Positions 8,506-21,630 of a stretch of DNA of 50,419 bases are shown here, in pieces. The notes beneath the pieces were generated by a model, which was given only the letters and a program-made list of their open reading frames with translations, was not told the DNA's origin and ran no database searches. Numbering within the stretch: the stretch's first letter is position 1; every line of letters begins with the position of its first letter. The stretch lies in the NCBI GenBank assembly GCA_022573815.1, contig JACZTG010000016.1, positions 1-50,419 on the forward strand. Reading direction: 5' to 3'. Origin of the DNA: Candidatus Neomarinimicrobiota bacterium. Lineage in GTDB: Bacteria > Fidelibacterota > SORT01. The position numbers and the translations under genes are program-made.

Positions 8506-10098
8506 TTATCTTACGATTTCCGATACGATGCCGTTTATAATTTCGCGTAACTCTCGTAATTCCATCCTTAACTCGGAAATTTCGTCTGTTTTCCCTTTCA
8601 ATTCCTTCGTGCTCTTATAGAGTTCCTGAATAGCGGCCAGCGCAATTCCCGAAGGATCAATTGTGGAGATAGTAACGTTGTTATCCCCTACATTGAAAAT
8701 AGAATAGAAATCCTGCGCCATAGGGCCTATATGTTCTATTTCCTCTCCCTGAGATTTATAGTTCCAACGTTTTATCGGTAGTTCCATAACCTTATTCAGA
8801 ATCTGTTTTGTGTTTACTTCCTTTATATTTCGTTTCATAGTACTGTCAGAAAGCGTCAGCCACGCTCCGCCACCCGAAACGAGCGATACGCCGGTCGTCA
8901 TTTGTGAATTTGTCAGGAAAGTAACTCCACCGGCAGCGCGCACCTTGAACTGATTGTCTTTGTCAGCAGTGACATACGTTGTCGTTGAAGCATCTCCAAA
9001 TACTATCGCGCCGTTTTTATCATTCGTGGAAGCAGCTGAGCCGAAAGCGATACTGTTGTTTCCATCGGCTATGAGGTTATTTCCCATTGCGACAGACCAG
9101 TTTCCACTCGCCTCGGTGTCTCTACCGAACGCTGTTGACCAGTTTCCGCTCGCCTTGGTATCCCGCCCGAATGCCGCTGAGAACTCACCTATATTGACAT
9201 CATTCCAGTTACCCAAGTTTGAGAAGCCTGCCCTGAAAGCGCCTTTGCTCTTGTCAAAAAACATTCTTCTTTCGTGTACACCTATACCGTCGTCATCCAA
9301 CTGAGTTGAGCCGAATACGAAATCATCAACCGCCAAGTTTCCGGGTATGTTTGATGTTACATTTGCTGTTGTGGAGAATGCTCCGTCCACTACTTCTCCG
9401 CCGCCTTCTGAAGGAGTCACCCAGCTGAGGTTTCCGGCTCCGTCATTTGTCATGACCATACCGTTTCCACCTTGAACTGTGGGGAGATTGAATGCGTAAT
9501 CCGGCTGTGGAACAAAATCTAATTCACTCTTTAGAGCATATGATTGCGCTGCCGCTCCTCCAAGTGAATCAGCGTTCCCTGCGCTGTTTATCGTTATATC
9601 ATCCGGAATCTGGGCATCGGAGGCAGTGCCTGATAGCGATTCAAAACTAAACGTTGTTACCGGTTCATAAAATGATGCAGGTCTTCCACCAAGAAAATCA
9701 CTGTTGAGCGCATGTGTTGATGAATCGCTCTTTAGCGATTTCAGAGAGAAGAAAGAATATCCGATACGCAGCCTTGGCTGTAGAACATCGTTCACCTCAA
9801 CGCTTAACCATAAATCCCGGTTTAGCTGAATGTTCAGGGGCTGTGATGAGCCGAGGAAGGCATCATAAAGTCCGTGATCCAAGACCACATTATGACTCTC
9901 CTCCCATAATTTTGTTCCGGCAGCGGCATCATCGTAGATGCGGAAGAGTATCTCATATTCTCCATCAGGAAGCGCATTCCCTGCTGCATCGGTCAGGAAT
10001 CCCTGCATAGAAACCACGGGATTAACCTGTGCCAACGTGTTATTGACTGCCATAAATAATAGTGCAGTCATTGTAATTAAACGCATTAATATTTTCAT
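8506..10098 (-). CDS. Secreted YadA-head-repeat protein with S74 peptidase chaperone domain
   Basis: The 530-residue protein has a signal peptide (MKILMRLITMTALLFMAVNNTLAQ) and a beta-sandwich N-region. Trimeric-adhesin head repeats of 14 residues follow (AFGRDTxASGNWS, near residues 305-345). A C-terminal intramolecular chaperone of the S74 type comes next (LSDSTMKRNI with the Ser/Lys dyad, then IKRWNYKS and IGPMAQDFY) and it ends in a coiled coil. S74 domains trimerise and then cleave themselves off phage tail spikes and bacterial surface fibres. Here the signal peptide and surface-protein neighbour argue for a cell-surface fibre, not a prophage. The frame is open to a TTG at 10167, but GGAGGC stands just upstream of ATG 10098 and the signal peptide starts there. 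Two CRP-type sites lie upstream. Confidence 0.85.
   Translation of the reverse strand: MKILMRLITMTALLFMAVNNTLAQVNPVVSMQGFLTDAAGNALPDGEYEILFRIYDDAAAGTKLWEESHNVVLDHGLYDAFLGSSQPLNIQLNRDLWLSVEVNDVLQPRLRIGYSFFSLKSLKSDSSTHALNSDFLGGRPASFYEPVTTFSFESLSGTASDAQIPDDITINSAGNADSLGGAAAQSYALKSELDFVPQPDYAFNLPTVQGGNGMVMTNDGAGNLSWVTPSEGGGEVVDGAFSTTANVTSNIPGNLAVDDFVFGSTQLDDDGIGVHERRMFFDKSKGAFRAGFSNLGNWNDVNIGEFSAAFGRDTKASGNWSTAFGRDTEASGNWSVAMGNNLIADGNNSIAFGSAASTNDKNGAIVFGDASTTTYVTADKDNQFKVRAAGGVTFLTNSQMTTGVSLVSGGGAWLTLSDSTMKRNIKEVNTKQILNKVMELPIKRWNYKSQGEEIEHIGPMAQDFYSIFNVGDNNVTISTIDPSGIALAAIQELYKSTKELKGKTDEISELRMELRELREIINGIVSEIVR
9053..9178 (-). repeat. 42-bp tandem repeat encoding YadA-type head motifs
   Basis: Units of 42 bp are visible inside the S74 gene; for example GACCAGTTTCC recurs at 9095 and 9137. 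Each unit encodes one 14-residue (S/A)xAFGRDTxASGNW-like head repeat. About three units are readable, with decay at the edges. Confidence 0.7.
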
Positions 10099-10104
10099 CG
10101 TTTT

Positions 10105-10110
10105 GCCTCC
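10105..10110 (-). promoter_or_regulatory. Ribosome binding site deciding the S74 gene start
   Basis: GGAGGC on the minus strand is 6 nt upstream of ATG 10098. It sets the start at the signal peptide rather than at the in-frame TTG 10167 or ATG 10146. Confidence 0.75.
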
Positions 10111-10198
10111 GATGATTTGTTTATTCCTTGCTGTTTTTCCGTTCATTTTCTTTTCAATTCCGTTCAAGCTGCATTACTCCATAATAATTCAATTTCAT

Positions 10199-18829: not shown

Positions 18830-18858
18830 TTGACTTCATTCTTCCACTCACTTATAAT
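18830..18858 (+). promoter_or_regulatory. Sigma-70 promoter of the barrel-cytochrome operon
   Basis: TTGACT (18830-18835), a 17-nt spacer and a perfect TATAAT (18853-18858) predict a start near 18865, about 30 nt before the first gene. This is the best housekeeping-type promoter I see in the window. Confidence 0.75.
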
Positions 18859-18895
18859 TACTTTTCGCTTGTAGTTATTAATTTGCCATTAAAAG

Positions 18896-20293
18896 GTGGA
18901 TAAGCATATTTCTCGCAATGATTTTCAATATCCGGGGGGGATATCAGTTCTCAATGCTATTGCTTTCATATTTTTTTCTTTAATTCAGATTTCATCCGTT
19001 TCAAGTCAATCCTACGACACTCGATTCACATCTTCAATTTATTCGTGGACAGAAAGCTATGACGGCACCGAAAGGGAACATCTCAGAGGTTATCAATCCG
19101 GTAGTCTGACACTGCGCGACGTAGGAATCAAAAGATTAAAGATTAAAAGTTACTTTTATGTTACCGACGATTTTTCTGAAGCTGTTGAGGGTGGCACATA
19201 CTTTAAGATGTATGACCTTTATGCGGAGTACACTCGGGCATTCATGGCAACCGATGTCCGATTTGGAAGACAATTCATCTTTGCCGGAGTTGGTAGGGGT
19301 CCGATGGATGGGCTTCGACTTACTTATAAAGGTTGGAAAAAGGGGAAAGTACGGCTTTACGCAGGTACATTGGCGCCACTTTCAAATCCGGAAACAGTTG
19401 ACGATTGGAATGAAAGCCATATTTTAGGCGGCGAACTAACTATTTTCCAACTATTGGGCAACGTTCTGAAACTCAGTTTTGTGAGAAGATCTAAAAATGT
19501 TGAACCGTATGAGCTTGATCAGCCGAGATTGGGAATAAGTTCCATAAACCCTATTTCGCTTCAACGGCAGGCAGCGGGATTCAATCTCGCAAGAAATTTA
19601 AATAAAGAAATGAGTCTGTTTATCCGGGGTGATTTCAGCGTAGGCGAAGGCGTTGTTGACGGAAATATTGCGTTGGAAAGAGGCGAGATCGTTTTCACCC
19701 ATTCTAAGCCGGAATCTCATTATCTGACTCTTGAACTCTCAAATAGACGTCCTTTAGTTTACGTCAATTCTTTCTTCAGCAGATTCACCAACCTGTTGCG
19801 CCGGAGCAATGATTTGAGTCTGGCGTTTGACAGGAAAGTGGCCGGCAATATGTGGCTAAACATTAAAGCGGCAACTGTTCTATACGGCGAAGGCGTAAAT
19901 AGCTTCCGGTTTAACAGTGGTATCACATTGAGCAAAATCTCCTCGGGGTTAGTGATTAGGAGAGGATATGGTGGAAACTGGACCGGCATTTACGGAGGAT
20001 ATTACGGCAAGTTATCCCGAAATCTAAGCCTTAGAGTTGACGGCGAATGGTCGGACTTTTCCATTACTTCCTTTGATCTTGATGATAACGACAACAGCAC
20101 CGCTTTCAGCTTGAGGACGGGATTCAATTTACGTTTTAGCAGGCGAGTCTCCATAGACGGAGAATTACAATCTCTGAGCCAATCCATTGAATGGAGAAAT
20201 ATCGGAAATATCATTCCCTTTGCAGGAAACGACAGGGAATTGAGAGTCTTTCTGAAACTTAATCTATGGTTTTTCAAGGGTGCGGATTACTAA
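18896..20293 (+). CDS. Outer-membrane beta-barrel protein of a cytochrome operon
   Basis: This 465-residue exported protein has a signal segment near residues 20-38 (AIAFIFFSLIQISSVSSQ). A cysteine-free, strand-rich body follows, with alternating hydrophobic/aromatic residues and many Gly/Tyr/Arg turns, ending in KLNLWFFKGADY. The start is GTG 18896; no later ATG/GTG/TTG precedes the signal. The next gene, an 11-heme cytochrome, starts immediately after its stop, which suggests co-production. By analogy with MtrB/PioB/OmbB it may sleeve the cytochrome through the outer membrane. It is shorter than those and homology is not established; an ordinary porin is the alternative. Confidence 0.7.
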   Translation: MDKHISRNDFQYPGGISVLNAIAFIFFSLIQISSVSSQSYDTRFTSSIYSWTESYDGTEREHLRGYQSGSLTLRDVGIKRLKIKSYFYVTDDFSEAVEGGTYFKMYDLYAEYTRAFMATDVRFGRQFIFAGVGRGPMDGLRLTYKGWKKGKVRLYAGTLAPLSNPETVDDWNESHILGGELTIFQLLGNVLKLSFVRRSKNVEPYELDQPRLGISSINPISLQRQAAGFNLARNLNKEMSLFIRGDFSVGEGVVDGNIALERGEIVFTHSKPESHYLTLELSNRRPLVYVNSFFSRFTNLLRRSNDLSLAFDRKVAGNMWLNIKAATVLYGEGVNSFRFNSGITLSKISSGLVIRRGYGGNWTGIYGGYYGKLSRNLSLRVDGEWSDFSITSFDLDDNDNSTAFSLRTGFNLRFSRRVSIDGELQSLSQSIEWRNIGNIIPFAGNDRELRVFLKLNLWFFKGADY

Positions 20294-21265
20294 TTGATTA
20301 AATATATTCGTTTAATTATTCTTTTTCTACTTGGCAGCTCTTCAATTATTTCGGCTGCCGATGAAAAGAATATTAGTCCTCTGAAGATTTCTCATAAAAT
20401 TCATTTGGCTATCCCGAATGTTAATTGCTCCACCTGCCACGAAGGCACCGATACCTCTATCTCGTCATCTGATGTTCTCCTGCCGACGAAAGAGGTTTGT
20501 CTGACTTGCCACAAATCAGATTCACCCGAACTGAAGCAGAGTAAGACAATAAAATTTATTCCGAAAGAACCTGAACTTAATTTCAATCATAAATACCATA
20601 CGGTGACGCGACAACTTCTCTGTTTCGTCTGCCATGTTAATGTGAAAGAAGTGGATTTCCTCACCGATGCCAATATGCCGCCGATGACCACTTGCGTTAA
20701 TTGTCATAATGATAAAGTTGCGCCTACGGACTGTTCATGGTGCCACATAAATGAAGATGAGCTTCGTCCCGAATTCCATACTGCCGATTGGCTTCACAAA
20801 CATCCGGTAAAATTCAACTCGGGAATCTTGAAGCCGGAAGAAAATTGCGTTATGTGTCATCAGGAAAACTGGTGTCAGGATTGTCATACAGGTTCTCAAC
20901 TTGCGAAATCGTCCTCAAAAAGTGTTGCACCTTTTTACCAGCCAACGGAACGGGGAAAGAAACCTCAATCTATCGGAAGAGTTCATTCTTTGAATTATCG
21001 TTTTTTACATCCTATAGAGGCAAAGGGAAAAGATCGTTTTTGCACTACTTGCCACGATTTCACAGAATTCTGCGTAGAGTGCCACAGAGATGACGAAAAT
21101 CAATTTATGCCTAAATGGCATCAGGGCGCCGATTGGGCGCCGAGCATTATTTTGGGCGGCAGGCACGCGGATTTTGCGAGAAGGGATTTGGAGCGTTGCA
21201 TGGGTTGTCACGATGTTCAAGGGCAAGCGACCATCTGCTTGAGATGCCACATAGACGAAAGATGA
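20294..21265 (+). CDS. Undecaheme c-type cytochrome
   Basis: This 323-residue exported protein (signal peptide RLIILFLLGSSSIISAA) has eleven CxxCH heme-attachment motifs, starting at residues 45, 69, 110, 134, 147, 185, 194, 250, 260, 302 and 315. Many additional His (FNHKYHT, HKHPVKF) could serve as distal ligands. Size and heme density resemble the periplasmic decaheme MtrA, with one more heme. There is no lipobox. The start is TTG 20294, directly abutting the barrel stop, and its end overlaps the next ATG (ATGA). It likely moves electrons across the periplasm and possibly the outer membrane. A soluble respiratory shuttle is the alternative. Confidence 0.9.
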   Translation: MIKYIRLIILFLLGSSSIISAADEKNISPLKISHKIHLAIPNVNCSTCHEGTDTSISSSDVLLPTKEVCLTCHKSDSPELKQSKTIKFIPKEPELNFNHKYHTVTRQLLCFVCHVNVKEVDFLTDANMPPMTTCVNCHNDKVAPTDCSWCHINEDELRPEFHTADWLHKHPVKFNSGILKPEENCVMCHQENWCQDCHTGSQLAKSSSKSVAPFYQPTERGKKPQSIGRVHSLNYRFLHPIEAKGKDRFCTTCHDFTEFCVECHRDDENQFMPKWHQGADWAPSIILGGRHADFARRDLERCMGCHDVQGQATICLRCHIDER

Positions 21266-21630
21266 AATTCCCACTTATTATAAATATCACTCTTTTCTTC
21301 CTTACAGGCTGTGCTGACCTTGCGGAAAATCCTACTGATATTGAGCATTTTGATAACGTACCGGATGCTGTGTTGACTATTATTGACGGCAACTGCTCAG
21401 ACTGTCATCAGTCCGACTCCCGGAGAGTTTTTAACGGTCAAAAACCATATTTCAGAAAGCTACAACCCGATAGCAGTTCGACTCTTGATACGCTTCAAAT
21501 ATGGCAAGCTCGGAAACGTATCAGTATTAGAGTGAGCGAAGGAACTATGCCGAGAGCATCAGATACCTTAGATGTCTTCAGCCGGCTTCCTCAGGAACAA
21601 ATTGATCTGATATTTAATTGGGCTTTTTAA
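21262..21630 (+). CDS. Mono-heme cytochrome-like lipoprotein
   Basis: The 122-residue protein has a short lipoprotein signal ending LFFLTGC (Cys near residue 16). One CSDCH heme motif lies in DGNCSDCHQSD and a later EGTMPRASD segment has a Met suited as the sixth ligand. It ends IDLIFNWAF, the usual C-terminal helix of small c-type cytochromes. The frame is open from an ATG at 21115, but the ATGA overlap with the undecaheme gene and the signal peptide fix the start at 21262. As third gene of the operon it could relay electrons to or from the multiheme protein. Confidence 0.8.
   Translation: MKFPLIINITLFFLTGCADLAENPTDIEHFDNVPDAVLTIIDGNCSDCHQSDSRRVFNGQKPYFRKLQPDSSSTLDTLQIWQARKRISIRVSEGTMPRASDTLDVFSRLPQEQIDLIFNWAF

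What the first reader, a model, noticed from the sequence alone, without database searches (positions are those of the whole stretch)
18830..21630. Compact barrel + 11-heme cytochrome + mono-heme lipoprotein operon: candidate trans-outer-membrane electron conduit
Three genes follow a near-consensus promoter with no spacing: the barrel stop abuts the cytochrome TTG start, and the cytochrome overlaps the lipoprotein by ATGA. Eleven CxxCH motifs sit in 323 residues, a size close to decaheme MtrA, next to a cysteine-free outer-membrane barrel. This is the logic of porin-cytochrome complexes (MtrAB, PioAB, OmbB-OmaB-OmcB). The barrel is clearly shorter (465 aa) and the third partner is a tiny mono-heme lipoprotein instead of a large surface multiheme, so it could be a distinct minimal type. 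It may serve extracellular electron transfer, or a periplasmic oxidase/reductase.
Basis: partly seen in the sequence, partly recalled or inferred. Interest (0 to 1): 0.75.

Follow-up and report, generated by a model that had tools for sequence, protein, structure and literature searches.

The report
Outer-membrane electron conduit, single-heme partner
Three adjacent genes from an uncultured bacterium (phylum Neomarinimicrobiota) most likely build a protein wire that carries electrons through the outer membrane; the wire belongs to a known but poorly studied family, and its odd feature is that the usual large surface cytochrome is replaced by a small lipoprotein with a single heme.

Summary
Window 18896-21630 carries a cysteine-free 465-aa barrel, an 11-CxxCH cytochrome (323 aa) and a 122-aa one-heme lipoprotein, with 0-bp and ATGA junctions, behind a TTGACT-17-TATAAT promoter conserved in two related genera. 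AlphaFold gives a confident barrel of about 22 strands (pLDDT 86.8). Barrel and cytochrome form a conserved unit: in 76 of 77 loci (Ignavibacteria, Neomarinimicrobiota, KSB1, Calditrichota, Latescibacterota) a barrel-family ORF lies directly upstream of the cytochrome. The same genome holds a second triad (14 hemes) beside Rieske and cytochrome b genes. The family matches the published porin-cytochrome (Pcc) cluster of Ignavibacterium album (IALB_1837-1840; 400 aa, 14 hemes) and is not MtrB/PioB by profile. Published Pcc porins have 18-22 predicted strands, so the short barrel is normal. The difference is the third partner: one heme in all 12 Neomarinimicrobiota-type loci, against 3-28 in nearly all Ignavibacteria loci. 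The window cytochrome is also reduced, lacking hemes 13-14 and heme 3 (kept by 42 of 43 relatives). Best reading: a conduit between periplasm and cell surface; direction and partner unknown. A new variant of a known kind, of moderate interest.

The parts
18830..18858 (+). sigma-70-type promoter TTGACT-17-TATAAT
   Evidence: 11/12 consensus; hexamers conserved in two orthologous loci while most of the flank diverges
18896..20293 (+). outer-membrane beta-barrel of the cytochrome-associated porin family (465 aa from GTG 18896, or 461 aa from ATT 18908), signal peptide, about 22 strands, no Cys
   Evidence: AlphaFold2 pLDDT 86.8, pTM 0.80; generic large outer-membrane barrels in Foldseek; alternating hydrophobic/polar strands; family alignment A3
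20294..21265 (+). 11-heme c-type cytochrome with c7-type modules, signal peptide; reduced member of a 14-heme family
   Evidence: Cytochrome_C7 3.1e-15; profile hits to 3ov0, ActA and weakly MtrA in PDB; heme-slot table
21262..21630 (+). mono-heme c-type lipoprotein (122 aa)
   Evidence: lipobox LTGC and one CxxCH; weak Haem_bd match; same position and type in 12 Neomarinimicrobiota-type loci

Best explanation
The three genes encode a porin-cytochrome (Pcc-type) conduit. The cytochrome, exported to the periplasm, is proposed to thread into the 22-strand barrel, which would insulate its heme chain through the outer membrane. The small lipoprotein is proposed to sit at the outer mouth and to pass electrons one at a time between the wire and an external partner through one heme, probably His/Met-ligated. 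Inner-side electrons would come from, or go to, the quinone pool through a bc-type complex and periplasmic cytochromes such as those encoded next to the paralogous triad of the same genome. Shown: operon anatomy, predicted barrel fold, family-wide co-conservation, the paralog beside Rieske/cytochrome b. Inferred: insertion of the cytochrome in the barrel, surface exposure of the lipoprotein, heme ligation, electron flow and its direction (outward is somewhat more likely).
For: Barrel-family ORF immediately upstream of the cytochrome in 76 of 77 loci. Multiheme lipoprotein with 3-28 hemes as third gene in nearly all Ignavibacteria loci. Confident ~22-strand barrel model. Match in size, heme number and gene order to the Pcc cluster IALB_1837-1840 and literature reports of OmbB-like PCCs in Ignavibacteria. 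Paralogous triad in the same genome, and triads of relatives, beside Rieske and cytochrome b or an NrfD/molybdopterin complex. Shared mature N-terminus C-[SA]-[ED]-[LIV]... of mono- and multiheme lipoproteins, resembling the acidic surface-export signal of Bacteroidetes. Ten distal-type His invariant in 43 family members.
Against: The barrel has no sequence match to MtrB in PDB or to Pfam MtrB_PioB, and Foldseek gives only generic barrels. The cytochrome model is poor after residue 170 and was made without hemes, so the wire geometry is untested. The window triad has no quinone-linked genes directly beside it. It lacks heme 3, which 42 of 43 aligned members keep, so the wire could be interrupted. 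No complex could be modelled.
Confidence: 0.78

Rival explanations
1. Same conduit, opposite direction: it takes electrons in from an extracellular donor (for example Fe(II) or a partner cell) and feeds them to the bc complex or to the heme-copper oxidases of this genome.
For: Two heme-copper oxidase genes and several cytochrome b loci exist in the genome; a single, probably high-potential, surface heme would suit a one-electron donor; a bc-type complex can in principle run in reverse. Mtr-type clusters without a surface multiheme are noted especially for Fe(II) oxidizers (PMC4245776).
Against: Nothing in the sequence fixes the direction. The relatives with described physiology (Ignavibacteria) are reported as iron, arsenate or nitrate reducers or anode-biofilm members (PMC7399161).
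Confidence: 0.3
2. The barrel is an ordinary substrate porin, and the cytochrome is a periplasmic electron carrier or reductase that only shares its operon; no electron passes through the membrane.
For: The barrel matches no known conduit porin by profile, Foldseek hits are generic porins, ushers and transporters, and the cytochrome's family matches are general c7-type.
Against: Co-conservation in 76 of 77 loci across several phyla and a conserved third cytochrome lipoprotein with an export-signal-like N-terminus fit a physical complex better than metabolic convenience.
Confidence: 0.13
3. The window triad is a decaying or repurposed relative of the 14-heme triad on contig C20: it lacks hemes 3, 13 and 14 and no longer forms a continuous wire.
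For: Heme 3 is lost through an in-frame deletion and the C-terminal pair is absent; the clade sits on a long stem (quick tree only).
Against: All three reading frames are intact in three genera with conserved synteny and promoter; cytochrome identity between genera stays at 65-71% and all other motifs and the ten invariant His are kept. Hemes 13-14 are absent from 9 of 43 members, and slot 3 is also missing in the distant G010 homologue, so both losses occur elsewhere.
Confidence: 0.12

Closest known systems
Pcc cluster of Ignavibacterium album JCM 16511 (IALB_1837-IALB_1840; Shi et al. 2014, PMC4245776)
   Same: Porin gene next to a periplasmic cytochrome (IALB_1838: 400 aa, 14 hemes), an outer-membrane cytochrome and an associated periplasmic cytochrome; the Ignavibacterium loci fetched here (L052, L059, L060) have the order 4-heme, 422-aa barrel, 397-398-aa 14-heme, 6-heme and are homologous to the window barrel and cytochrome.
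   Different: Window cytochrome has 11 hemes and 323 aa; the third partner has one heme; no 4-heme gene upstream. The I. album sequences themselves were not in hand.
Geobacter OmbB-OmaB-OmcB and ExtABCD-type porin-cytochrome complexes
   Same: Short porin (18-22 predicted strands for Pcc), periplasmic multiheme, outer-membrane cytochrome (PMC4245776); PMC7399161 reports OmbB-like PCCs in Ignavibacteria.
   Different: The large OmcB-type surface cytochrome is missing; the sequence relation of the porins was not tested here.
MtrAB / MtoAB / PioAB
   Same: Barrel plus a periplasmic cytochrome of similar size; weak profile match of the cytochrome family to MtrA chain 6r2q_A (E 0.0019).
   Different: Barrel has ~22 strands (MtrB has 26, general knowledge) and no match to MtrB_PioB.
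c7-type multidomain cytochromes: PDB 3ov0 (a Geobacter 12-heme protein, from memory GSU1996) and ActA of alternative complex III
   Same: Tandem c7-type modules; best PDB profile hits 3ov0_A (4.9e-31) and 8k9e/6btm; Foldseek top hits 8k9e and 6btm.
   Different: Those are not known as barrel partners; the window protein has further heme modules in its C-terminal half and a barrel gene beside it.

Membership tests
Porin-cytochrome (Pcc) conduit in the sense of Liu/Shi 2014 | porin-like outer-membrane barrel gene adjacent to the gene of a periplasmic multiheme cytochrome | tested here: met
   adjacency in the window and in 76 of 77 loci; confident barrel model
Porin-cytochrome (Pcc) conduit in the sense of Liu/Shi 2014 | outer-membrane multiheme cytochrome as third partner (usual, not obligatory: two-gene clusters are included in the published definition) | tested here: not met
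   third gene has exactly one CxxCH and only three Cys; the published set includes clusters without this partner
Porin-cytochrome (Pcc) conduit in the sense of Liu/Shi 2014 | homology to a described Pcc porin and cytochrome pair | tested here: inconclusive
   Ignavibacterium loci in hand are homologous and match the published IALB_1838 in length and heme number, but the IALB and Geobacter sequences were not compared directly
[quoted passage not shown]
   needs biochemistry
MtrB/PioB porin family (PF11854) | match to the family profile | tested here: not met
   no match among 48 barrels at E<=0.1, none in the whole genome at E<=1
MtrB/PioB porin family (PF11854) | 26-strand barrel | tested here: not met
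   22 long strands in the model
c7-type multiheme cytochromes (PF14522) | profile match above the curated cut-off | tested here: met
   56.2 bits against 24.8

The most novel reading that the evidence does not exclude
Neomarinimicrobiota carry a distinct conduit subtype in which the surface terminal has been reduced to one high-potential His/Met heme on a lipoprotein with a family-wide export or docking peptide, so that electrons leave (or enter) one at a time towards a specific soluble or protein partner rather than a mineral, and the window copy works although a heme is missing from the ancestral chain.
Probability: 0.3. Interest if true: 0.6.

Novelty: new variant of a known kind. Interest (0 to 1): 0.42.

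Why it matters
If true, a genome of an uncultured phylum has two parallel outer-membrane electron conduits, one of them encoded next to a bc-type complex, and offers a natural experiment in how few surface hemes and how many wire hemes a conduit needs. The barrel family has no curated model of its own in Pfam or NCBIfam, so these conduits are missed by standard annotation; the alignments made here would make a usable profile.

Tried and rejected
MtrB/PioB membership of the barrel: rejected by profile. Foldseek of the barrel: generic barrels only, not informative on function. AlphaFold of the cytochrome: only the first ~170 residues usable, so heme spacing could not be measured. Exact bis-His count for the window cytochrome: the protein has 11 spare His for 11 hemes, but only 10 are conserved, so complete bis-His ligation is not claimed. 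dN/dS between genera: dS saturated. The barrel tree did not finish in time, so co-evolution of the two trees was not tested. Literature searches for such conduits in Marinimicrobia gave no paper describing one, in an open-access library only.

Full report
Observation. The three reading frames are as described: a barrel ORF at 18896-20293 with no cysteine, an 11-CxxCH cytochrome at 20294-21265 starting on the TTG that follows the barrel stop, and a 122-aa lipoprotein at 21262-21630 that overlaps by ATGA. Shuffled sequence of the same composition never gave more than 3 CxxCH in 20,000 trials. The promoter-like TTGACT-17-TATAAT at 18830-18858 is conserved in the two orthologous loci of other genera in the same family, which also share the neighbours on both sides.

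Family. The cytochrome is made of c7-type modules (PF14522, 3.1e-15); its family profile finds the structure 3ov0 (4.9e-31), ActA of alternative complex III and, weakly, MtrA 6r2q_A. In the same genome, contig C20 holds a second barrel (27% identity), a 14-heme cytochrome (40%) and a mono-heme lipoprotein, followed by 4-heme and 11-heme cytochromes, a b561-type protein, a Rieske protein and a cytochrome b with a nine-heme extension. Relatives carry the same triad beside Rieske and cytochrome b-type genes (L014, L015, L029, L062, L111) or beside an NrfD/molybdopterin complex (L030, L062) (Pfam was run on L010, L014 and L030 only, the others are read from motif and size).

Distribution. A scan of named genomes gave 80 loci from Ignavibacteria, Neomarinimicrobiota, KSB1, Calditrichota, Latescibacterota and others. 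Of 77 loci with upstream sequence, 76 have a barrel-profile-positive ORF directly upstream of the cytochrome. The third gene has 3-28 hemes in nearly all Ignavibacteria loci and exactly one in all Neomarinimicrobiota-type loci: the window, its paralog, G001, both G002 triads, G006, G011, G052, G056, L047, L062 and L111. Two distant homologues in the same phylum set, G010 and G059, have 6-7 hemes in that place. A lipobox was found in 70 of 73 third genes, and the mature N-terminus is C-[SA]-[ED]-[LIV]-x-x-[DN]-[IL]-[TP] in most, whatever the heme number; in the one-heme proteins the resemblance is partial. It resembles, without being identical to, the acidic surface-export signals SDDDD and SDDFE of Bacteroidetes (PMC5080379).

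Barrel. AlphaFold2 on a 48-sequence alignment gave pLDDT 86.8 and pTM 0.80, with a signal helix and 22 long strands. The alternating strand pattern fits a membrane barrel. The standard barrel formula gives a backbone diameter of about 40 A for 22 strands against 47 A for 26. Foldseek returns generic large barrels. The family has no match to MtrB_PioB and no curated NCBIfam model of its own.

Cytochrome reduction. The family has 14 heme slots. The window protein lacks slots 13-14 (present in 34 of 43) and slot 3 (present in 42 of 43); slot 3 is gone through an in-frame deletion relative to G001. Ten non-motif histidines are invariant in all 43 proteins and two more go with the C-terminal hemes, so two of the 14 hemes have no conserved distal His; from spacing these may be slots 3 and 6 (inference). 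That would fit the separate absence of slot 3 in the window and in the distant G010 protein.

Known counterpart. Shi et al. 2014 (PMC4245776) describe the Pcc cluster of Ignavibacterium album, whose cytochrome IALB_1838 has 400 aa and 14 hemes, with porin IALB_1839, outer-membrane cytochrome IALB_1837 and periplasmic cytochrome IALB_1840; they give 18-22 predicted strands for Pcc porins and 1-15 typical motifs for the outer-membrane cytochromes, the one-motif cases having five further atypical motifs. The Ignavibacterium loci found here have the same order and sizes. PMC7399161 reports OmbB-like PCCs in Ignavibacteria. The window triad is therefore best filed with a known kind; the truly one-heme partner (only three cysteines) and the shortened wire are the variant features.

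Mechanism and limits. The most likely function is passage of electrons through the outer membrane between periplasmic carriers and a surface lipoprotein. The lipoprotein family keeps CxxCH and a methionine (Met96 in the window protein, in a GTMP or GxM setting) in every member aligned, which suggests a His/Met, high-potential heme; this is inference. The genome has two heme-copper oxidases and several cytochrome b loci, so both outward and inward flow are possible. No complex was modelled, the second half of the cytochrome model is unreliable, and localisation was not tested.

Noticed in passing
window 18890-18910; L012:986-1451; L011:7436-7517: The barrel gene may start on a non-canonical AUU codon: an ATT aligns in three genera after a shared in-frame TAA, and the G001 copy has no ATG, GTG or TTG between 986 and 1451. 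The window copy also has a GTG at 18896.
   Followed up: partly
third-gene lipoproteins of L033-L112: A conserved peptide follows the lipidated cysteine in mono- and multiheme lipoproteins alike (C-[SA]-[ED]-[LIV]-x-x-[DN]-[IL]-[TP]), possibly an export or docking signal.
   Followed up: partly
L012:460-860 approximately: An insertion of about 400 bases, absent from the two orthologous loci, lies between the thiolase-like gene upstream and the conserved promoter in G001.
   Followed up: no
L010:867-3431: Cytochrome b fused to a nine-heme C-terminal domain (855 aa), next to a Rieske protein, beside the paralogous triad.
   Followed up: partly
L043:9189-11813 and L095:9010-11787: Third-gene cytochromes with 28 and 26 CxxCH motifs replace the usual 6-10-heme lipoprotein in two Ignavibacteria-group loci.
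   Followed up: no
window 8506-10167 (-): 553-aa protein with a C-terminal Peptidase_S74 (endosialidase chaperone) domain.
   Followed up: no
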